DNA of 64,000 nucleotides from Lachnospiraceae bacterium (GTDB lineage: Bacteria > Bacillota > Clostridia > Lachnospirales > Lachnospiraceae): NCBI GenBank assembly GCA_017469935.1, contig JAFUFL010000066.1, positions 36,330 through 100,329 on the forward strand, in the 5' to 3' direction. Positions 3,130-56,415 of this stretch are shown one piece after another; position 1 is the stretch's first letter, and the number at the start of each line of letters is the position of its first letter. The position numbers and the translations under genes were made by a program. The notes under the pieces were generated by a model. That model worked only from the letters and a program-made list of their open reading frames with translations, did not search any database and was not told the origin of the DNA.

Positions 3130-3603
3130 TTAAATCTTAATCTGACTGTTCCTGAAATCTCTCTCCGTCTCCCGCTTCATGGCCTTCTTCCTGAGGTCAT
3201 CTCTCTTGTCGTAGAGCTTTTTGCCGCGGGCGAGGCCGATCTCTATTTTGACCCGGCCGTTTTTAAAGTAGACCTGCAAGGGCATGATGGTGTAACCCTT
3301 TGCCTGCACCTGGCCCGCCAGCTTCATGATTTCTCTCTTGTGCAGGAGCAGGCGCCTTTTCCTGAGAGGCTCGCGGTTGAAGATGTTGCCCTTCTCGTAG
3401 GGGCTGATATTCATGCCCTCTATGAAAGCCTCACCGCGATCGATGTTGACAAAGGCCTCTTTGATGCTGCACTTGCCCAGGCGAATGGATTTGACCTCGG
3501 TGCCGAACAGCTCGATCCCCGCCTCATACTTTTCTTCTATAAAATAGTCGTGGTAGGCTTTCTTGTTGTTTGCCACCAGCTTGATCGCATCTTTTCCGCT
3601 CAT
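3130..3603 (-). CDS. smpB: SsrA-binding protein SmpB
   Basis: 157 residues, the usual family length. SmpB binds the tRNA-like domain of tmRNA and places it in the A site of stalled ribosomes. Recognisable segments are NKKAYHDYFIEEKYEAGIEL at the N-terminus, the GTEVKSIR strand, the MHISPY-like motif (NISPYEKGN), and the basic C-terminal tail (KKLYDKRDDLRKKAMKRE) that enters the mRNA channel. The start codon overlaps the rnr stop by 4 bp, indicating translational coupling. The order rnr-smpB-ssrA is the standard Firmicute trans-translation cluster; RNase R degrades the nonstop mRNA. Confidence 0.97.
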   Translation of the reverse strand: MSGKDAIKLVANNKKAYHDYFIEEKYEAGIELFGTEVKSIRLGKCSIKEAFVNIDRGEAFIEGMNISPYEKGNIFNREPLRKRRLLLHKREIMKLAGQVQAKGYTIMPLQVYFKNGRVKIEIGLARGKKLYDKRDDLRKKAMKRETERDFRNSQIKI

Positions 3604-5888
3604 TTTCTTCCCTTTCTGCCTTTTCCCTTCTTACTGCTCATGTGCCTGCCGGCCTTACCGGATAGCACCCTGCCTGTGCGGTCCATAAAAGGACTTTTTT
3701 TGCGGGATTTGCTGTTCTTATTCTCCCGGTCACGATTCTCGCTGTGCGCAGCGTCTGACGGATCGGAAGAGATCTGCTCTCTCCCTGCTTCCGTCCCCTC
3801 AAAGGGCATGAAATCCACCGTTCTCCTCGCACAGTCCGCTCCCGCGACCCTGACCTTCATCTCCTGGCCGAGCATATAGGTCTTTCCCGTCCGCTCACCT
3901 ACCAGTATATACTTTTTTTCGTCATAATAGTAGAAATCATCTGTCAAGTCGCTGATTCGGATCATTCCTTCGACCGTGTCGGGCAGTTCCACGTAGATGC
4001 CCCAGCCGGTCACGCCGGATATGGTTCCCGTGTACGTCTCGCCGGTCTTCTCTTCCATGTACTGCGCTTTCTTGAGCTTGACGGTCTCGCGCTCCGCTTC
4101 CGCTGCGCGCTGCTCCATGGCCGAGCTCCTCGCCGCGGCCTCGGGCAGGTAAAGATTTAACCTGTCGACCGTCCTCTCATCCATTTCCCCTCGCAGCCAG
4201 TATTTGAGACCTCTGTGCACCAGAAGGTCGGGATACCTGCGAATGGGCGAAGTAAAGTGGCAGTAATAATTCAGGGCCAGCCCGAAATGCCCTTCGCACG
4301 CGGTGCCGTACTCCGCCTTCTGCATGCTGCGCAGGACGACTCTTGTCAGCATGGCTTCCTCGGGTCTGCCCTTCATCTTCTGCAGAAGGTGCCGGATCTG
4401 AGAGGGATGAACGTCGCTCTGTCCCGGTTTGAAAATATAGCCGAAGCCTTTTACCAGCTGCGCCAGCTCCTTCATTTTCTCAGCTGCCGGGACGCCGTGC
4501 ACGCGGTAGACGGCAGGGATCTCCAGGTAGGCGCAGTGCCTGGCCACCGTCTCGTTGGCCAGCAGCATGAAATCCTCAATGAGGTCCGTTGCGGCCGTTC
4601 TCTCCCGCAGGGAGATGTCGATCGGCCTGCCCGTCTCATCCAGAGTGATCTTCGCTTCCGGGAAATCGAAGTCAATGCTGCCGCGCTCTTCCCGCTTTCT
4701 CTTCAGAAGCGCTGCCAGCTTCTTCATCTTTCTGAGCATGGCCGCGATCTTTTTCGTCCTGCCCTTGGTCCCGCGGTAGCCCTGCCCGCTGAGTGACGCA
4801 GCGATCTCGCTCTCGTCGCCCTCCTCGTACAGGCGCATCACCCCGTTATAGGACAGGCGGGCATCCACGTGGAGGATCGATTCCGCGATCTCATAGTCGA
4901 TCACATCGCCGTTCTCATCAATCGTCATGAGGCAGCTCATGGCGAGCCTGTCCTCTCCCGCATTAAGGGAGCAGATTCCGTTGGAGAGCTTTCGGGGCAG
5001 CATCGGGATCACGCGGTCTGCCAGATAGACGCTGGTGCCTCTTCGGAATGCCTCTCTGTCCAGGGCGGAACCTTCCGTCACATACTCCGCCACGTCCGCG
5101 ATGTGGACGCCCAGCTTCCAGAGCTTTCCCTCTTTGACAAGAGAAATGGCGTCGTCGATGTCCTTGGTGTCTTCTCCGTCAATGGTGACGGTGGGAAGAG
5201 CTCTCAGGTCTTTCCTGTTTTGGCCTTTTATTTTGTCGCTCTCAGTATCGACGCGGTCCGGAAGCATCCCGGCCTCATCCATCACTTCCTGTGGGAACTC
5301 CGTCGGGATGTCAAAGCCCTTTACCAGCGAGAGTATGTCCACGCCCGGATCTGTCACGTGTCCCAGGATTTCCGAGACGGAACCGACGGGATTGGCGCCG
5401 TTTCCGCTGTAGACCGAGATCTGTGCGACCACTTTGTGTCCCTCGAGAGCGTCCCCTTTCCCCTCTGTCAAAATATCGACGTCAAAGGGAATCTTCGTAT
5501 TATCCGGGGTCACATACCCGCTTATGCTGAGTGTGACCATCCTGCCGATCTGCCTGCCGCCCACCTTTATGGCTTCCTTGAGGTAGGTCTGCTGCGCCGG
5601 TCTTCGCAGTGCATGGAAGGTGCCGACGACCTTCGTAATGCCGTGCTCGACGATCCTGACCACTTCCGCTTCGGCCCGGCGTCCGTGCCCGTTATCTCCG
5701 TGTCCGCTCTCGTCCATGCTGCCCTTTGTGATCCTTACCTCTACCACGTCTCCGTATACGGCTCCTCCCGTGCATCCCTGCGGGATGAAAAGATCTCTCT
5801 CGAATCCCTCTACGGTGACAAAGCCGAATCCTCTGGCGTTGCTGTCAAATTTTCCTGTGTAGATCTGTTCTTTCCTGTTTTTACTCAT
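3600..5888 (-). CDS. rnr: Ribonuclease R, 3'-5' exoribonuclease
   Basis: 762 residues. Domain order is cold-shock domains (residues 10 to about 200), the RNB catalytic domain, an S1 domain near 625-705, and a long Lys/Arg/Ser-rich tail. The RNB signature with its metal-binding aspartates is visible as DGEDTKDIDDAISL, followed by HIADVAEYV and the DLIEDFMLLAN region. It degrades structured RNA and acts on tmRNA-tagged messages. The ATG at 5888 follows AAAGGAGA at good spacing. It overlaps smpB by 4 bp and lies downstream of secG. Confidence 0.97.
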   Translation of the reverse strand: MSKNRKEQIYTGKFDSNARGFGFVTVEGFERDLFIPQGCTGGAVYGDVVEVRITKGSMDESGHGDNGHGRRAEAEVVRIVEHGITKVVGTFHALRRPAQQTYLKEAIKVGGRQIGRMVTLSISGYVTPDNTKIPFDVDILTEGKGDALEGHKVVAQISVYSGNGANPVGSVSEILGHVTDPGVDILSLVKGFDIPTEFPQEVMDEAGMLPDRVDTESDKIKGQNRKDLRALPTVTIDGEDTKDIDDAISLVKEGKLWKLGVHIADVAEYVTEGSALDREAFRRGTSVYLADRVIPMLPRKLSNGICSLNAGEDRLAMSCLMTIDENGDVIDYEIAESILHVDARLSYNGVMRLYEEGDESEIAASLSGQGYRGTKGRTKKIAAMLRKMKKLAALLKRKREERGSIDFDFPEAKITLDETGRPIDISLRERTAATDLIEDFMLLANETVARHCAYLEIPAVYRVHGVPAAEKMKELAQLVKGFGYIFKPGQSDVHPSQIRHLLQKMKGRPEEAMLTRVVLRSMQKAEYGTACEGHFGLALNYYCHFTSPIRRYPDLLVHRGLKYWLRGEMDERTVDRLNLYLPEAAARSSAMEQRAAEAERETVKLKKAQYMEEKTGETYTGTISGVTGWGIYVELPDTVEGMIRISDLTDDFYYYDEKKYILVGERTGKTYMLGQEMKVRVAGADCARRTVDFMPFEGTEAGREQISSDPSDAAHSENRDRENKNSKSRKKSPFMDRTGRVLSGKAGRHMSSKKGKGRKGRK

Positions 5889-49397: not shown

Positions 49398-51275
49398 TCA
49401 GCTCTTCTGCTGCGCTTTTACCATTTTCTCGTATATTTCAAAGTTCTCCTGGTCAAAACAGCACATGACCACATGCATCACATAGTCCTTATTAGCCTTG
49501 AACCATTTACCGACCGTCTCCATGGCGATCTTTGCCGCCTCCTCCTTGGGATAGCCGTAAACACCCGTGGAGATGTTCGGGAAAATGATGCTGTGAGCGC
49601 CTTTCGACCTGGCCAGATCAAGCGAATTTGTGTAGCAGGACGCAAGGAGTTTGGGGTCATCCTCATCTCCGTCATAAATAGGTCCTACGGTGTGGATGAT
49701 GTACTTGGCGGGAAGATTGTAAGCGCCTGTGATCTTGGCTTCGCCCGTGTGGCAGCCGTCCAGGGTCCTGCACTCTTCTAAAAGTCCCGGTCCCGCCGCC
49801 GCGTGAATGGCGCCGTCGACGCCGCCGCCGCCCAGAAGAGAAACATTCGCCGCATTGACGATGCAGTCCGCCTTCATTTTCGTGATGTCGCCCCTTGTCA
49901 CCAAAATGCCGCTTCGGGACGCTCTGACCACTCTCTCCTCCGCCTTGAAGATGGTATCGATCACCTTTCTCTCAAGGAAAATCGGCTTTTTATCCGGATT
50001 GAGCACTATACCGGCGATATTCTCCGGCGCTTTGGGGGCCGCGCCGTTTCCGGGCATGAACTGCTCGAGCGCCTGGCGGATCGTCGCTCCCATGGCGGGA
50101 TCTCCCTTAGATGCCCCGGTCTTATACATCTGTTCGCTCGTGTAAGCCACCTGCCACATCTTGCCGTCCTTTGTGGAGATCAGTTTCATCCGGAGTCCTC
50201 TCATCGGAGCCTTGTTTCCCGCCTGCGGCGCGCTGAAGGGCTGCACCGGGAACAGAATGCTGCCGCCTCCGTGCATGGCGGCTCTGACCGCCTCCAGGCA
50301 TCGGGCGAACTTTTCGTTCGTCCTGTCCGCGGAAAACTCTTCCAGTCTCTTTTCAATCTCCTCACTTCCCGCAAAGCTCAATTTTTGAGCCTGTGCTCCG
50401 GGCCTTTCCGGCCTGAGGGCATTCTGCCAGGCTTTCATTCTGGCGGGATCGCTCTCTCTGGCCTTCTTGTCCGCCTCGAGCTTGTCATCAAATCGGTCGA
50501 GCACGCCGCGAAGGTCATTCGGAAGGCGGTCCCTGGCTTCCTTCTTAAGGTTCTCGGGCACCCCGTAAAAAGCCTCCGCCATGCTGCCCGCGATACAGGC
50601 CAGCGTGTCGCTGTCACCGCCCAGGGACACGGCGTTTCGGATCACGTCCTCAAAGCTCTCTCCTTCCAGAAACGCGATGATCGCTTCCGGAACCGTCTGC
50701 TGGCAGGTTTCCACGTGGTGGTAATCGGGACGAATCTGGTCGCAGGTCCTGTCGAGGTCATAGCCGAAGGTCTTCGAGACCGTCGCCTTGATCTCCTCCT
50801 TGGAAGCTCCGTGGAGCGCCATAAAGATTACGGACGCCGTCGCCTGCGCACCTTTCACCCCCTCGGGATGATTGTGGGACACCTCCGCCGTCACGGCCGC
50901 GACACGGAGCATCTTCCGAAGGTCCTCCTGGCAGAGCCAGGCTGCCGCCGATACGCGCATGGCACTCCCGTTTCCGAAGCTGTTATAGGGCTTTGGATTA
51001 CTCTTGTGCAGCCACATGCTGAATTTCGCGCCGTATCCGGCAAAAGGATACCGGTCGCCGTATTTCTTCATAGCCGTCACGAGAGCCTTTTTCATTGTCT
51101 CTTCGTCGGCGTCCACCCCGCAGTTCATAAGCGCTTCCGCCACGGCCAGCGTCAGGACGCTGTCGTCCGTGAACTCCGATCTCTCCGAGAAGAGGTCAAA
51201 ATCCTTAGTCTTGATATTATTTCTGTCGAACTCATAAGGGCTTCCGATTATATCTCCCAAAATAGCACCGTACAT
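49398..51275 (-). CDS. ADP-ribosylglycohydrolase / SseB-like / macrodomain fusion
   Basis: 625 residues in three modules. Residues 1-265 form an ADP-ribosylhydrolase (DraG/ARH) domain with metal-binding EFTDDS (34-39) and GGDSDT (219-224). Residues about 300-445 resemble an SseB-type domain (ILFPVQPF, KLISTKDGKMWQVAYTSEQMYKTG, IAGIVLNPDKKPIFL). Residues 455-620 are a MacroD-type macrodomain: GDITKMKADCIVNAANVSLLGGGGVDGAI, LPAKYIIHTVGP, FPNISTGVYGYP. Both end domains are known families that hydrolyse ADP-ribose bonds or bind ADP-ribose. No ADP-ribosyltransferase or sirtuin is encoded in the window. Probably cytoplasmic. Confidence 0.85.
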   Translation of the reverse strand: MYGAILGDIIGSPYEFDRNNIKTKDFDLFSERSEFTDDSVLTLAVAEALMNCGVDADEETMKKALVTAMKKYGDRYPFAGYGAKFSMWLHKSNPKPYNSFGNGSAMRVSAAAWLCQEDLRKMLRVAAVTAEVSHNHPEGVKGAQATASVIFMALHGASKEEIKATVSKTFGYDLDRTCDQIRPDYHHVETCQQTVPEAIIAFLEGESFEDVIRNAVSLGGDSDTLACIAGSMAEAFYGVPENLKKEARDRLPNDLRGVLDRFDDKLEADKKARESDPARMKAWQNALRPERPGAQAQKLSFAGSEEIEKRLEEFSADRTNEKFARCLEAVRAAMHGGGSILFPVQPFSAPQAGNKAPMRGLRMKLISTKDGKMWQVAYTSEQMYKTGASKGDPAMGATIRQALEQFMPGNGAAPKAPENIAGIVLNPDKKPIFLERKVIDTIFKAEERVVRASRSGILVTRGDITKMKADCIVNAANVSLLGGGGVDGAIHAAAGPGLLEECRTLDGCHTGEAKITGAYNLPAKYIIHTVGPIYDGDEDDPKLLASCYTNSLDLARSKGAHSIIFPNISTGVYGYPKEEAAKIAMETVGKWFKANKDYVMHVVMCCFDQENFEIYEKMVKAQQKS

Positions 51276-52279: not shown

Positions 52280-52288
52280 TGATATAAT
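52280..52288 (+). promoter_or_regulatory. Extended -10 promoter of the FtsK-like gene
   Basis: TGA followed by TATAAT (52283-52288), back to back with the HAD promoter. A perfect GTTTGCAAAC palindrome (52270-52279) lies between the two -10 boxes and could be an operator. The 90-nt leader has a GCAGGC/GCCTGC hairpin. Confidence 0.6.
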
Positions 52289-52378
52289 CCAATTACTGAC
52301 GCCCCAGCATAGAGCAAGCCGGCGCCGCCCTGCAGGCATCCCGCCTGCCCGGGTAAACTACTGAAGTAAGAGGTAAGA

Positions 52379-53569
52379 ATGGCAGTTTTTACACTTCCCA
52401 AGGTCAGGGACCTGCTGAGATATCATACAAGATGGAATGACCAGGCCCTTAATCCCTACATTGAGGACCTGATCGACTTATGGGCCGAAAATGATATATA
52501 CGGAACCCTGGACGTATGCATGCAGGGTCCCATGCTGACCCGCTTCGGCATCAAGCCGGATGACATGAAGAGCGCCAGCCGCATCATGAATCTTGAAAAG
52601 GCCTACCGCTATATGTTCCGCCGCAAGGACATAAGGGTCTACAGGAGCGACGGACGCATCTACATCGATGTGCCCTGGCAGCGCGACCCGGTATGGCTCG
52701 GGGACCTTCTGACCAGCAGAGAATTCGAGTCCTCCCAGGGACTCCCCCTTGCCATCGGTATGAATATATACCGCGAATGTATCATGCACGAACTGACGGA
52801 GGTTCCTCATCTTCTGGTCGGCGGCAATCCCAGCAGCGGTCTCGATGAGTTTCTTGTGGGACTCCTCCTCAGCATTCTGGTTCACCAGTCGCCGGACGAG
52901 ATTGAGCTCTTTCTCTGCTCTTCGGGAAATCTGGGCTTTGATGATTACGCGGTGCTCCCGTACTGCCACGTCATCAGCTCTGTCCGCAATACCATGGCCA
53001 TGCTCTCGGAAATGAGCAGAGAGATCGACAGGCGCAGCCGTCTGCTGATAGATTCCCGCTGCCGCAACATCTTCCAATACAATGAGCGGGGAGGAAATCT
53101 GCGCCACAGAGTCATCATGATCACCGAATATCACAGACTCTTTACCTCCAACAAGCAGGCCGCCATGGCTTATATCCTGCGCATAGCGGAGCTGGCCGGT
53201 CCCTGCGGCATCCACCTGATCCTGGCCTCTTCCGACCCGGCCTGCCTGCGCGGACTGAGCGAGAGTTTCCCGGCAAGAGTCTGCCTCAAGGTGAGCACTC
53301 CTCAGGATTCCCAGGCCTTACTAAACCAGAAGGGCGGCGAATCCCTTCCCCGCAAGGGTTCGCTCTATTACCTGGACGGCATCGACCCGGATCCCCAGTA
53401 TCTTCAGTGCGGCTTTGTCACGCAGCGCGAGGTTCGAAGTGTCCTCGAAGTGCTCGGGAGCAATTATGTCAACATCCGCAAGCGGTCGATTTTTGAGGAG
53501 ATCGAGGACGACGATCCCGAGGATGGTCACGAGAGCTCCGGCAGGAAAAAATTCAAGCTCCCGTTTTGA
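52379..53569 (+). CDS. FtsK/SpoIIIE-like protein with degenerate nucleotide-binding motifs
   Basis: 396 residues; AGAGG is 6 nt before the ATG. It aligns by eye with the alpha-beta motor region of FtsK/SpoIIIE: QGPMLTRFGIKPDDMKSASRIMNLEKAYRYMF (49-80) resembles the beta domain, VPWQRDPVWLGDLLTSREF the entry to the alpha domain, and HELTEVPHLLVGGNPSSGLDEFL (137-159) the Walker A segment. Where active motors have GATGSGKS this has GGNPSSGLDE, without the Lys and Ser/Thr. The Walker B region reads VIMITEYHRLF (245-255), and GIHLILASSDP (277-287) matches GIHLILATQRP. There are no membrane segments and no gamma winged-helix domain; the C-terminus is acidic then basic. Likely a non-hydrolysing relative of unknown role. 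Confidence 0.75.
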   Translation: MAVFTLPKVRDLLRYHTRWNDQALNPYIEDLIDLWAENDIYGTLDVCMQGPMLTRFGIKPDDMKSASRIMNLEKAYRYMFRRKDIRVYRSDGRIYIDVPWQRDPVWLGDLLTSREFESSQGLPLAIGMNIYRECIMHELTEVPHLLVGGNPSSGLDEFLVGLLLSILVHQSPDEIELFLCSSGNLGFDDYAVLPYCHVISSVRNTMAMLSEMSREIDRRSRLLIDSRCRNIFQYNERGGNLRHRVIMITEYHRLFTSNKQAAMAYILRIAELAGPCGIHLILASSDPACLRGLSESFPARVCLKVSTPQDSQALLNQKGGESLPRKGSLYYLDGIDPDPQYLQCGFVTQREVRSVLEVLGSNYVNIRKRSIFEEIEDDDPEDGHESSGRKKFKLPF

Positions 53570-53750: not shown

Positions 53751-53803
53751 AAAAAACAGAGGGCGCTGCACTCGCTGATTGATCAGCAAGTGCAGCGCCC
53801 TCT
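53751..53803 (-). terminator. Terminator after tRNA-Ala
   Basis: 15-bp perfect stem (53758-53772 with 53789-53803) with an inner CTGAT/ATCAG hairpin in the loop and a run of six T on the minus strand (53756-53751). Confidence 0.88.
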
Positions 53804-53814
53804 TATTAATTTAG

Positions 53815-53887
53815 TGGAGATAGCGGGATTCGAACCCGTGACCTCTGCGTTGCGAACGCAGCGCTCTCCCAGCTGAGCTATATCCCC
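53815..53887 (-). tRNA. tRNA-Ala, anticodon CGC
   Basis: 73 nt. Acceptor GGGGATA pairs with TATCTCC, D-arm GCTCAGCTGGGAGAGC, anticodon stem CTGCG/CGCAG with loop TTCGCAA (anticodon CGC, codon GCG), T-arm CGGGTTCGAATCCCG. The discriminator is A and the next bases are CTA, so CCA is not encoded. It has a consensus promoter and a strong terminator. Confidence 0.96.
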
Positions 53888-53958: not shown

Positions 53959-55137
53959 TCACTTTCTGGGCTGTCTGAGGAAAGAAGGAATATCCAGGTT
54001 CTCCTGCTTTACAGTGCTCTTCGGAGCGCTTGTACTCACAGGTCTTGTTCCGTTTCCGGTGCGGGTTCCCTGAGACTGAGTGCCTCTGCCCTTCGGAGCG
54101 GTTCCCTGATAGTTCCCCTTAAAGGTCTGGCTGTTTCCCTTGCGCACGTTGGTGTTGTCGAACCGATAGCTGGAGGGAACGGAATCCTTGCTTCCGATAC
54201 CGGTCGCAATGACTGTGACGTCACAGGAATCCGTATTGCTGTCATCATACATGGCGCCGAAGATGATGTTGACATCGTCGCCTGCCTGATCCTGCACATA
54301 GCTTGCAGCGTCAGATGCATCTGCCAGGGAGATATCTCCGGAGATGTTGATGATGACATCGGTAGCGCCGCTGACAGTGGTCTCCAGAAGAGGAGATTCG
54401 ACCGCCATCTTCACAGCGTCTGTAGCCTTGGTCTCGCCCTTGCCGTATCCGATACCGATATGTGCCACGCCCTTGTCTCTCATGACCGTCTGCACATCCG
54501 CGAAGTCCAGATTGATGATGGAGGGAACATTGATCAGGTCCGTGATACCCTGTACGGACTGCTGAAGAACTTCATCCGCCTTCTTGAGGGCCTCGGGCAA
54601 AGTAGTCCTGCGGTCCATGATCTCGAGGAGTCTGTCATTAGGGATGACGATCAGTGTATCGACGTTCTCCTTAATGTTCTCGATTCCCACAAGAGCTCTC
54701 TGCATGCGGCTCTTAGCCTCAAAGCTGAAAGGCTTTGTTACGACGCCGACGGTAAGGATGCCCATTTCCTTGGCGATTCTTGCAACAACGGGAGCTGCGC
54801 CGGTTCCGGTACCGCCGCCCATGCCGCAGGTAACGAAGACCATATCCGCGCCCTTGAGAGCCTGGGAGATCTCGTCAGCACTCTCTTCCGCCGCCTTCTG
54901 ACCAACCTCCGGATTTGCGCCTGCACCAAGTCCCTTTGTCAGCTTCTCACCGATCTGCAGGAGTCTGGGTGCTCTGCAAAGATTCAGAGCCTGAACATCC
55001 GTGTTGACACCGATGAATTCAACACCTATAACATCTACATCTACCATTCGGTTAACAGCGTTGTTGCCTGCACCGCCAACGCCAACGACTATAATCTTGC
55101 AAGCCGGTTCCGTATCATTTGTCTTGATTTCCAGCAC
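53959..55137 (-). CDS. ftsZ: Cell division GTPase FtsZ
   Basis: 392 residues from a GTG at 55137 (product [11 protein letters not shown]) with GGAGGGG 7 nt upstream; the longer ATG frame adds an unconserved hydrophobic leader. Tubulin-type GTP-binding signature [16 protein letters not shown]-terminal [15 protein letters not shown], and the conserved C-terminal peptide [12 protein letters not shown] that binds FtsA/SepF-type tethers. A Gly/Thr/Arg-rich linker separates the two. Last gene of the dcw cluster, with its own promoter. No ftsA or sepF in the window. Confidence 0.98.
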
Positions 55138-55179
55138 GGTTGGCCCCTCCTTATTGAAAAAATAATATTCACGTAAATA

Positions 55180-55208
55180 ATAATACAATTGAACCTTGAA
55201 ATAATCAA
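55180..55208 (-). promoter_or_regulatory. Promoter of ftsZ
   Basis: -35 TTGATT (55208-55203), 17-bp spacer, -10 TATTAT (55185-55180) in the AT-rich 96-bp gap between divIB and ftsZ. Confidence 0.65.
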
Positions 55209-55233: not shown

Positions 55234-56415
55234 TTATTTCAAGATGATGTTTTGATCCGATGATGTATAATTTGTCATGTTGATCGTTCCGCTCCTGCCC
55301 TCCAGGTAAGGCATGATCTGCGCGATCTTCGATATTTTGAGCTCGAAATCGGTTCTTCCCAGCATTACTTTGATCTCATCCATGTACATGACGATACTGC
55401 CCGACTTGGTGAGAACGACGCAGTCCGTCCTGATCCCAAACTTCCTGAGAGTCTGCAGGACTTCCAGAACCATTCCCAGACCCGCTTCGTTGTCGGAAGC
55501 CATCTTTGACCCGATCTCCGCCTCCGTGACGGAGAGTCCCGTCACAAAAGTTGCATTCTTGACCGTGAGCGGGGATTTTTCCAATACGATCCCGTCCGCC
55601 GAAAAATAGAGCTTCTTGCCGGCGTACGGTATAAAACCGGCTATGTCCATATCCTTGACCGTGATCGTGATCGTATCGTAAGAGTTTAGAGTGACCTTTA
55701 CACTCTCCTCGAAAGGGATCCTGGGTGCCTTCGGCGTCATGTACAGCAGGGTGAGAAACACGGTGTTATGCATCAGCTGTGAGTCATCGCTGATCACCTT
55801 CTCCGCGATCTCTTCACTGGTATACAGGGAATTTCCTCTGACGTGCACGGTTCGCACCGTGCAGGTAAAGTAGATGGCGGTTATACAAGCCGCAGCCACC
55901 AGCACAAGGAAGGTAAACAGGTTTAATCCCATCCCGCCTTCATCGGACTCCTCTTCGTCGTCCTCGTCAAGGTCGTCATCCTCGTCAAGGTCGTCATCCT
56001 CGTCAAAGTCGTCATCCTCGTCAAAGTCGTCGTCCTCGTCAAGGTCATCATCCTCGTCAAGGTCGTCGTCCTCGTCAAGGTCATCGTCCTCGTCATCAAA
56101 GTCGTCATCCTCGAAGTCGTCCTCGTCGACATCGTCGTCTTCGCCGATGTCGCCGTCCTCTTCGGAGGCGTCGTTTTTCAGATTTTCTTCCCCGCCGGAG
56201 CTTTTCGTCTCATCCGGCTTTTCCGCTGCTTTCCTGACAGCTTCATCCGCTGCTTTCCCGACAGCTTCGTCTGCCGCTTTCCCGACAGCTTCGTCTGCCG
56301 CTTTCCCGACAGCTTCATCCGCCGCTTTCCCAACAGCTTCATCCGCCGCTTTCCCGACAGCTTCGTCCTGCCCGGTCACGTTCCATTTTCCGGGATCGTC
56401 TGTTGCCTGTACCAT
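55234..56415 (-). CDS. divIB: Cell division protein DivIB/FtsQ with repetitive cytoplasmic domain
   Basis: 393 residues. The cytoplasmic N-terminus (1-161) has six DEAVGKAA-type octapeptides (17-64) and then a very acidic tract (85-158) made largely of DEDDD(L/F) hexapeptides. One membrane segment (about 164-186) and the extracytoplasmic POTRA/FtsQ region follow (VRTVHVRGNSLYTSEEIAEKV). DivIB/FtsQ works with FtsL and DivIC in the divisome. The cytoplasmic part is usually short. The start lies 3 bp after the ftsW stop. Confidence 0.88.
   Translation of the reverse strand: MVQATDDPGKWNVTGQDEAVGKAADEAVGKAADEAVGKAADEAVGKAADEAVGKAADEAVRKAAEKPDETKSSGGEENLKNDASEEDGDIGEDDDVDEDDFEDDDFDDEDDDLDEDDDLDEDDDLDEDDDFDEDDDFDEDDDLDEDDDLDEDDEEESDEGGMGLNLFTFLVLVAAACITAIYFTCTVRTVHVRGNSLYTSEEIAEKVISDDSQLMHNTVFLTLLYMTPKAPRIPFEESVKVTLNSYDTITITVKDMDIAGFIPYAGKKLYFSADGIVLEKSPLTVKNATFVTGLSVTEAEIGSKMASDNEAGLGMVLEVLQTLRKFGIRTDCVVLTKSGSIVMYMDEIKVMLGRTDFELKISKIAQIMPYLEGRSGTINMTNYTSSDQNIILK
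55961..56086. repeat. 18-bp tandem repeat encoding the acidic tract of DivIB
   Basis: Seven 18-bp units in register from 55961 to 56086, differing at one to three positions, continuing in degenerate form to about 56130. On the minus strand each encodes six residues, DEDDD with Leu or Phe. Confidence 0.93.
56225..56368. repeat. 24-bp tandem repeat encoding DEAVGKAA in DivIB
   Basis: Six 24-bp units at 56225, 56249, 56273, 56297, 56321 and 56345, differing at one to four positions. In-frame copy-number change is possible. Confidence 0.93.

What the first reader, a model, noticed from the sequence alone, without database searches (positions are those of the whole stretch)
52379..53569. FtsK/SpoIIIE-like protein with a dead Walker A motif
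The sequence shows the FtsK alpha-beta layout (beta-domain-like residues 49-80, MPHLL-like EVPHLLVGG, GIHLILASSDP). The P-loop reads GGNPSSGLDE where active motors have a Lys and Ser/Thr, and the Walker B Asp is Thr. There are no membrane helices and no DNA-reading gamma domain. FtsK hexamers need ATP hydrolysis, so I infer a pseudo-motor: a DNA-bound scaffold, an adaptor for a true FtsK, or a subunit in a mixed ring. It is a separate plus-strand gene with its own promoter, next to the division cluster.
Basis: partly seen in the sequence, partly recalled or inferred. Interest (0 to 1): 0.78.

Follow-up and report, generated by a model that had tools for sequence, protein, structure and literature searches.

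The report
Conserved motor-dead FtsK paralogue
One group of Lachnospiraceae bacteria carries, besides its normal DNA-pumping protein FtsK, a shortened copy whose engine parts are gone but which is carefully preserved, so it probably does a non-motor job such as holding other proteins.

Summary
Window 52379-53569 (+) encodes a 396-aa protein with an FtsK alpha-beta fold by sequence profile (PDB FtsK E 4e-29; hhalign probability 100) and no Walker A lysine. It is not a decaying copy. Orthologues occur in 34 of 62 genomes of the genus, 377-411 aa. In 34 of 34 the Walker A Lys and Walker B Asp are gone; the arginine finger is gone in 33. The separate FtsK of the same genomes is intact at these sites in 33 of 33 found (none found in one draft). 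dN/dS is 0.02-0.28 in 20 pairs, within the range of neighbouring genes. Bearers lie on one side of the FtsK tree except one nested incomplete genome. Two profile searches beyond the genus (397 and 299 genomes, own included) listed no orthologue. Adjacency to ftsZ is clade-specific: within 0.6 kb in 13 of 34. I read it as a stand-alone FtsK pseudo-ATPase, most likely a non-motor scaffold or adaptor with a conserved C-terminal docking peptide. The partner is unknown; a co-divergence signal with FtsK rests mainly on four genomes. A mixed ring with FtsK is less likely, as the trans-acting arginine is lost too.

The parts
52379..53569 (+). Pseudo-FtsK gene, 396 aa: alpha plus RecA-like beta domain, no membrane part, no gamma
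   Evidence: hhalign to the 60 FtsK motors of the genus: probability 100, E 3.5e-44, 363 columns
52379..52678 (+). N-terminus and alpha domain (residues 1-100); GPxxTR kept from FtsK; new near-invariants W19, P26, Y27, D97, W100
52820..52849 (+). Dead Walker A, residues 148-157 GGNPSSGLDE
   Evidence: Lys in 0 of 34 orthologues against 60 of 60 FtsK
53111..53128 (+). Former Walker B, residues 245-250 VIMITE; Asp lost in 34 of 34, Glu kept in 31 of 34 (Asp in 3)
53198..53200 (+). Former arginine-finger position (R620 of P. aeruginosa FtsK), Gly274 here
   Evidence: Arg in 1 of 34
53228..53260 (+). Remodelled DNA loop II region (residues 284-294), 3 residues shorter than FtsK; another Arg (R291 here) conserved in 30 of 34
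53486..53506 (+). Conserved C-terminal peptide after a variable linker (SIFEEIE here; SIF[DE]E[IL] in 14 of 34, [ILF][WL][DEQ][KRM]LF type in the other 20)
52280..52288 (+). Possible extended -10 (TGATATAAT), read by eye
   Evidence: not listed by the scan
52368..52373 (+). Shine-Dalgarno-like AAGAGG, read by eye
53959..55188 (-). ftsZ, convergent neighbour (context)

Best explanation
This is a stand-alone FtsK pseudo-ATPase: an FtsK alpha-beta module without membrane part or gamma domain, whose nucleotide site is gone and whose DNA loops are changed, kept by selection in one clade of Lachnospiraceae. Shown: the residue losses, their conservation, purifying selection and coexistence with an intact FtsK. 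Inferred: it cannot hydrolyse ATP or pump DNA. Inferred with less certainty: it works as a protein-binding scaffold or adaptor, with the conserved core as the body and the short C-terminal peptide on a variable linker as a docking tail. FtsK itself is the first partner to test.
For: Fold. Residues: with residue roles from PMC7321959 (passages); Walker A Lys 0/34, Walker B Asp 0/34, arginine finger 1/34, Q631 0/34, R661 0/34 (Lys in 2), while the FtsK of the same genomes keeps K472, D595, E596, R620, Q631 and R632 in 33/33. Selection: dN/dS 0.065 for the window against its 95% relative, beside 0.044 ftsZ, 0.075 ADP-ribosylglycohydrolase-macro, 0.116 HAD, 0.031 pbp2 and 0.313 HIGH nucleotidyltransferase; 0.02-0.28 over 20 pairs, and no protein change in the 21st. 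Distribution: 34 of 62 genus genomes; bearers on one side of the FtsK tree except one nested incomplete genome. Only 27 of 163 FtsK-conserved columns are kept, while 16 new near-invariant positions arose. C-terminal peptide of one of two types in 34 of 34. Partner lead: distances PSEUDO~FtsK keep partial r 0.69 after FtsZ and SMC (n 28), against 0.21 PSEUDO~U32 and 0.02 FtsK~U32.
Against: No structure, binding or expression data. The co-divergence signal falls to 0.50 without G353, G301, G354 and G357 (FtsK~U32 then 0.45), and with G334 and G346 also out to 0.42, below FtsK~U32 at 0.64. In those reduced sets PSEUDO~FtsZ given SMC is higher still (0.75, 0.77), though only 0.11 in the full set. 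In one search, with seven genomes out, HAD~FtsK (0.71) exceeds PSEUDO~FtsK (0.55). The C-terminal tail did not pass a test for unusual amphipathicity (1 of 34 below 0.05). No operon partner common to the loci was seen; in L067, L068 and L075 a HAD_2 gene follows on the same strand. In ten orthologues (L066-L075) the changes are milder (K to R, D to E), so residual nucleotide binding cannot be excluded there.
Confidence: 0.6

Rival explanations
1. Subunit or brake of FtsK: it enters the FtsK hexamer, or caps it through the alpha ring, and slows or gates the motor.
For: The alpha-domain core is kept (G362 34, P363 34, T366 33, R367 34 of 34) and R380 is R/K in 32 of 34; co-divergence with FtsK.
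Against: The trans-acting arginine finger is lost (33/34), loop II is shortened, and 136 of 163 FtsK-conserved columns are not kept, so it is unlikely to support a neighbour's ATP site; the co-divergence rests mainly on four genomes.
Confidence: 0.2
2. Nucleotide-binding switch: the pocket still binds ATP or ADP without hydrolysis and the protein signals by conformational change.
For: The first Gly of the P-loop (31/34) and the Walker B Glu (31/34) are largely kept; ten orthologues have GRT and EE at the motifs. EccC ATPase3 domains with little activity still bind ATP (PMC6954902, passages).
Against: The window's own motif has Leu-Asp for Lys-Ser and Thr for the Walker B Asp; ten members also lack three residues of the P-loop.
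Confidence: 0.1
3. DNA-bound scaffold without motor activity.
For: FtsK ancestry; basic residues at the R632 column in 16 of 34 and at the K643 column in 19 of 34 (next to an alignment gap), and another Arg, R291 here, in 30 of 34 within the loop II region.
Against: The window protein has D, S, P and Q at the R632, K643, K657 and R661 columns; R661 is lost in 34/34 (Lys in 2). K657 is not informative, as the active FtsKs here lack it too. Net charge over the shared region averages -4.7 in 34 pseudo-FtsKs against +1.2 in 56 FtsKs.
Confidence: 0.08
4. Degenerate domain of a type VII secretion ATPase (EssC/EccC).
For: NCBIfam EssC matches at 5.9e-13; such domains are known to be degenerate (PMC11154593, passages).
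Against: The FtsK model scores better (2.9e-20), the alignment to FtsK runs through the alpha domain, it is a short free protein, and I saw no secretion genes among the neighbours identified.
Confidence: 0.02
5. A decaying FtsK copy without function.
For: Active-site loss.
Against: 34 intact frames (own included); dN/dS 0.02-0.28 in 20 pairs of 21 computed, the 21st having no protein change.
Confidence: 0.01

Closest known systems
FtsK / SpoIIIE DNA translocase, alpha-beta motor (P. aeruginosa FtsK, PDB 2iuu, 6t8b)
   Same: alpha and RecA-like beta domain in one chain; about 30% identical to the own genome's FtsK
   Different: no Walker A Lys, no Walker B Asp, no arginine finger, DNA loops changed, no gamma, no membrane part
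Degenerate FtsK-type domains of EccC/EssC in type VII secretion (DUF, D2, D3)
   Same: FtsK-type ATPase fold with lost cis and trans elements; proposed regulatory or substrate-binding roles (PMC11154593, PMC6954902, PMC4925161; passages read)
   Different: those are domains of a large membrane ATPase; this is a free protein with an FtsK alpha domain
Short FtsK-like protein of G079 (L085), 363 aa, other genus
   Same: alpha-beta only, similar length; in one tree it falls outside the canonical FtsKs, as the pseudo-FtsKs do (support 82 for the canonical side)
   Different: intact GATGSGKS and DE; only 27% identical; both branches are long, so the grouping is unsure

Membership tests
FtsK/SpoIIIE translocase | FtsK_SpoIIIE Pfam domain above the curated cut-off | tested here: met
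   60.9 vs 24 bits
FtsK/SpoIIIE translocase | FtsK alpha domain | tested here: inconclusive
   Pfam 19.2 bits, cut-off 22.9; but hhalign aligns residues 3-366 to FtsK at probability 100
FtsK/SpoIIIE translocase | Walker A GxxGxGK[ST] | tested here: not met
   Lys in 0 of 34
FtsK/SpoIIIE translocase | Walker B hhhhDE | tested here: not met
   Asp in 0 of 34; Glu kept in 31
FtsK/SpoIIIE translocase | Arginine finger R620 | tested here: not met
   Arg in 1 of 34
FtsK/SpoIIIE translocase | DNA loop I basic residue R661 | tested here: not met
   Arg in 0 of 34, Lys in 2
FtsK/SpoIIIE translocase | DNA loop II basic residues R632 and K643 | tested here: inconclusive
   three residues shorter; R632 column Arg 5 and Lys 11, K643 column Arg 14 and Lys 5 of 34; Asp and Ser in the window protein; alignment uncertain there
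FtsK/SpoIIIE translocase | Membrane domain and gamma domain | tested here: not met
   no gamma match; highest 19-residue hydropathy 1.41
FtsK/SpoIIIE translocase | ATP hydrolysis, hexamer, DNA translocation | not testable with these tools
   needs protein
EssC/EccC type VII ATPase | Full-length multi-domain protein above the NCBIfam cut-off | tested here: not met
   47.4 vs 778.4 bits

The most novel reading that the evidence does not exclude
A clade of Lachnospiraceae evolved a dedicated, soluble pseudo-FtsK that binds the true FtsK (or the divisome) and regulates chromosome translocation at division: the first stand-alone pseudo-subunit of an FtsK-type motor.
Probability: 0.25. Interest if true: 0.8.

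Novelty: new variant of a known kind. Interest (0 to 1): 0.55.

Why it matters
Degenerate FtsK-type domains are known inside type VII secretion ATPases, but four literature searches (open-access library only; two empty, the other two seen as listings plus passages of one paper) showed me no free FtsK paralogue of this kind. If it binds FtsK, it would be a natural regulator of what PMC7321959 calls the fastest known translocase, and a ready-made tool to ask which parts of the alpha-beta ring carry non-motor functions. If it binds something else, it shows how a motor fold is turned into a scaffold.

Tried and rejected
Decaying pseudogene: rejected by selection. Type VII secretion origin: disfavoured. 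Mobile-element origin: no close relative in phages or plasmids; the best matches of all 187 and 383 records are under 60% identity, the ten listed of each being 24-30%. C-terminal membrane anchor: the tail resembles short amphipathic anchors (recalled), but only 1 of 34 tails beat its shuffles at 0.05, so not claimed. Division-cluster gene: adjacency is not general. Origin by duplication of the genus FtsK: the tree puts the 11 pseudo-FtsK rows sampled on a long stem (support 100) outside the canonical FtsKs, which can be long-branch attraction; left open. G344 fragment: at first taken for a cut pseudo-FtsK; by its position and 190-aa frame it fits the end of G344's FtsK (reasoning, no call). 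Rows dropped: L086 (a secretion-ATPase-like hit) and L085 from all orthologue counts; L087 and L088 gave no match. Distance tests: G356 left out (partial FtsZ); also G306 (no FtsK found), G304 (short FtsK), G347 (near-copy of G355), and G310 and G358 (only weak U32 matches), leaving 28 of 34. A third control, RNase R, was searched but found in only 12 of 30 genomes and not used.

Full report
Observation. The ORF at 52379-53569 (+) encodes 396 residues. It matches Pfam FtsK_SpoIIIE above the cut-off and FtsK_alpha below it, and its best solved relative is P. aeruginosa FtsK, E 4e-29. A profile of 34 orthologues aligned to a profile of 60 FtsK motors of the genus gives probability 100 and E 3.5e-44 over 363 columns.

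The active site. I placed P. aeruginosa numbering on the alignment. Roles of R620, R632, K643, K657, R661, K377 and R380 are from PMC7321959 (passages read). In the 34 pseudo-FtsK rows (window plus L052-L084) the Walker A Lys is never present (Leu 17, Arg 13, Ile 2, Ala 1, Thr 1) and the Walker B Asp is never present (Thr 17, Glu 10, Ser 3, Gly 3, Asn 1). The Walker B Glu is kept in 31 (Asp in 3). R620 is kept in 1, Q631 in 0, and R661 in 0 (Lys in 2). Loop II is three residues shorter in all 34. The R632 column holds Arg 5 and Lys 11, the K643 column Arg 14 and Lys 5, with the alignment uncertain beside the gap; the window protein has Asp and Ser there. K657 is not informative, because the active FtsKs here do not keep it either. 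Ten rows, L066-L075, have a three-residue deletion in the P-loop followed by GRT. Net charge over the shared region averages -4.7 in the 34 rows and +1.2 in 56 FtsKs (4 of 60 too short to use).

The true FtsK. The own genome has a separate FtsK, a 1112-aa frame with alpha, beta and gamma matches. FtsK was found in 33 of the 34 bearers, all with the Lys, Asp, Glu and arginine finger intact; G306, a 73% complete draft, gave none.

Distribution. In the genus, 34 of 62 genomes carry the orthologue, at 30-95% identity. Frames run from 377 to 411 aa with the start codon that I chose as nearest to the match. On a tree of 60 FtsK motors the bearers need two changes: one branch (support 93/93) parts 26 rows without the gene from the bearers, and G323, 79% complete and without the gene, lies among the bearers. 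The midpoint root of that tree falls inside the bearers; with other genera added, the 7 bearers sampled group together (drawing). In genome contigs 9 loci were found, all titled Lachnospiraceae MAGs. A single-sequence search of 299 family genomes and profile searches of 397 family genomes and 299 phylum genomes (own genome included in each) list nothing between the own gene (625 bits) and other FtsK-like matches (208 bits or less, most with frames over 700 aa). Those listings are cut, but in score order, and only some first-look candidates were scored per genome (up to 4, up to 6), so rare distant members could be missed.

Selection. Nei-Gojobori dN/dS for the window against its closest relative is 0.065; five neighbours in the same pair give 0.031-0.313. 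Over 21 chosen pairs, 20 give 0.02-0.28, highest in the L082-L084 group, and one pair has no protein change; synonymous sites are near saturation in the wider pairs. The gene is clearly maintained.

What is conserved. Of 163 columns at least 95% conserved in FtsK, 27 are kept in at least 90% of pseudo-FtsKs. These include GPxxTR of the alpha domain, P460, L463, G466, E596, G623, H625, D659-S660 and Q692. Sixteen positions are newly near-invariant, such as W19, P26, Y27, D97, W100, D103, G108, M128 and F297. The C-terminus ends in a short peptide of one of two types in 34 of 34, after a variable linker. I read this as a docking tail (inference).

Context. Neighbour identities are from Pfam: HIGH nucleotidyltransferase (the name TmcAL is recalled), ADP-ribosylglycohydrolase-macro, HAD hydrolase, FtsZ, FtsW-type, glycosyltransferase 4 (MraY, recalled) and a penicillin-binding protein; the DivIB label of 55234-56415 has no Pfam match and is recalled. 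The HAD match is found in 31 of 33 fetched loci and the nucleotidyltransferase in 25 of 33, some loci ending at contig ends; orthology of the HAD and glycohydrolase hits in distant loci is not proven. ftsZ lies within 0.6 kb in 13 of 34, 4-21 kb away in 6, and on another contig in 15 (from the coordinates). In four genomes without the gene (G325, G320, G337, G311) the nucleotidyltransferase and ftsZ are linked and the stretch between them has no match to the pseudo-FtsK profile.

Partner lead. Pairwise distances of pseudo-FtsK and FtsK correlate (r 0.895, n 28) and keep partial r 0.69 after FtsZ and SMC, against 0.21 for pseudo-FtsK~U32 and 0.02 for FtsK~U32. Without G353, G301, G354 and G357 the values are 0.50, 0.26 and 0.45; with G334 and G346 also out, 0.42, 0.46 and 0.64. 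Pseudo-FtsK~FtsZ given SMC is 0.11 in the full set but 0.75 and 0.77 in the two reduced sets. An earlier run with HAD and the nucleotidyltransferase as controls gave pseudo-FtsK~FtsK the top partial value in the full set (0.84) and without the four (0.69), but with seven genomes out HAD~FtsK (0.71) exceeded it (0.55). This is a lead, not evidence of binding.

Reading. A free FtsK alpha-beta pseudo-ATPase is shown as far as sequence can show it. A scaffold or adaptor role is inferred. A mixed working ring is less likely because cis and trans elements are both lost. The nearest known parallel is the degenerate FtsK-type domains of EccC/EssC, for which a structure and lack of ATP binding are reported (PMC11154593, passages) and substrate-peptide binding in a sister domain (PMC6954902, passages). 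It works like those in being a non-motor FtsK fold, but it is not a member of that family.

Noticed in passing
window 55234-56415 (-), ORF between ftsZ and ftsW (DivIB by recall; no Pfam match at 1e-5): N-terminal part consists of repeated KAADEAVG units and a long run of Asp/Glu-rich repeats before a hydrophobic segment.
   Followed up: no
window 53758-53803 (-) and 53814-53887 (-): A 20-pair terminator-like hairpin follows a tRNA-Ala (CGC) gene that has a 12-of-12 TTGACA-17-TATAAT match at 53935-53907.
   Followed up: no
L140, L141, L142 (G353, G301, G354) and L091 (G357): The only FtsK found in these genomes is on a very long branch (1.6-1.8 changes per column), while SMC distances are not unusual; possible replacement or acceleration, in step with the most diverged pseudo-FtsKs.
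   Followed up: partly
window 3600-5888 (-): RNase R-like (RNB) protein beside the tmRNA gene: a match at E 1e-40 or better in 12 of 30 bearer genomes, only the window's nearer relatives.
   Followed up: no
L085:7827-8918 (+): A 363-aa alpha-beta-only FtsK-like protein with intact motifs in another genus of the family, next to HTH-HD and Schlafen-group-3 helicase genes, perhaps a mobile or defence region.
   Followed up: partly
G000:C72:32786-32875 (L003): A third, sub-cut-off FtsK_SpoIIIE match (22.5 bits, 547-aa frame) in the own genome.
   Followed up: no
window 49398-51275 (-): ADP-ribosylglycohydrolase fused to a macro domain, near the pseudo-FtsK in the window's closer relatives.
   Followed up: no
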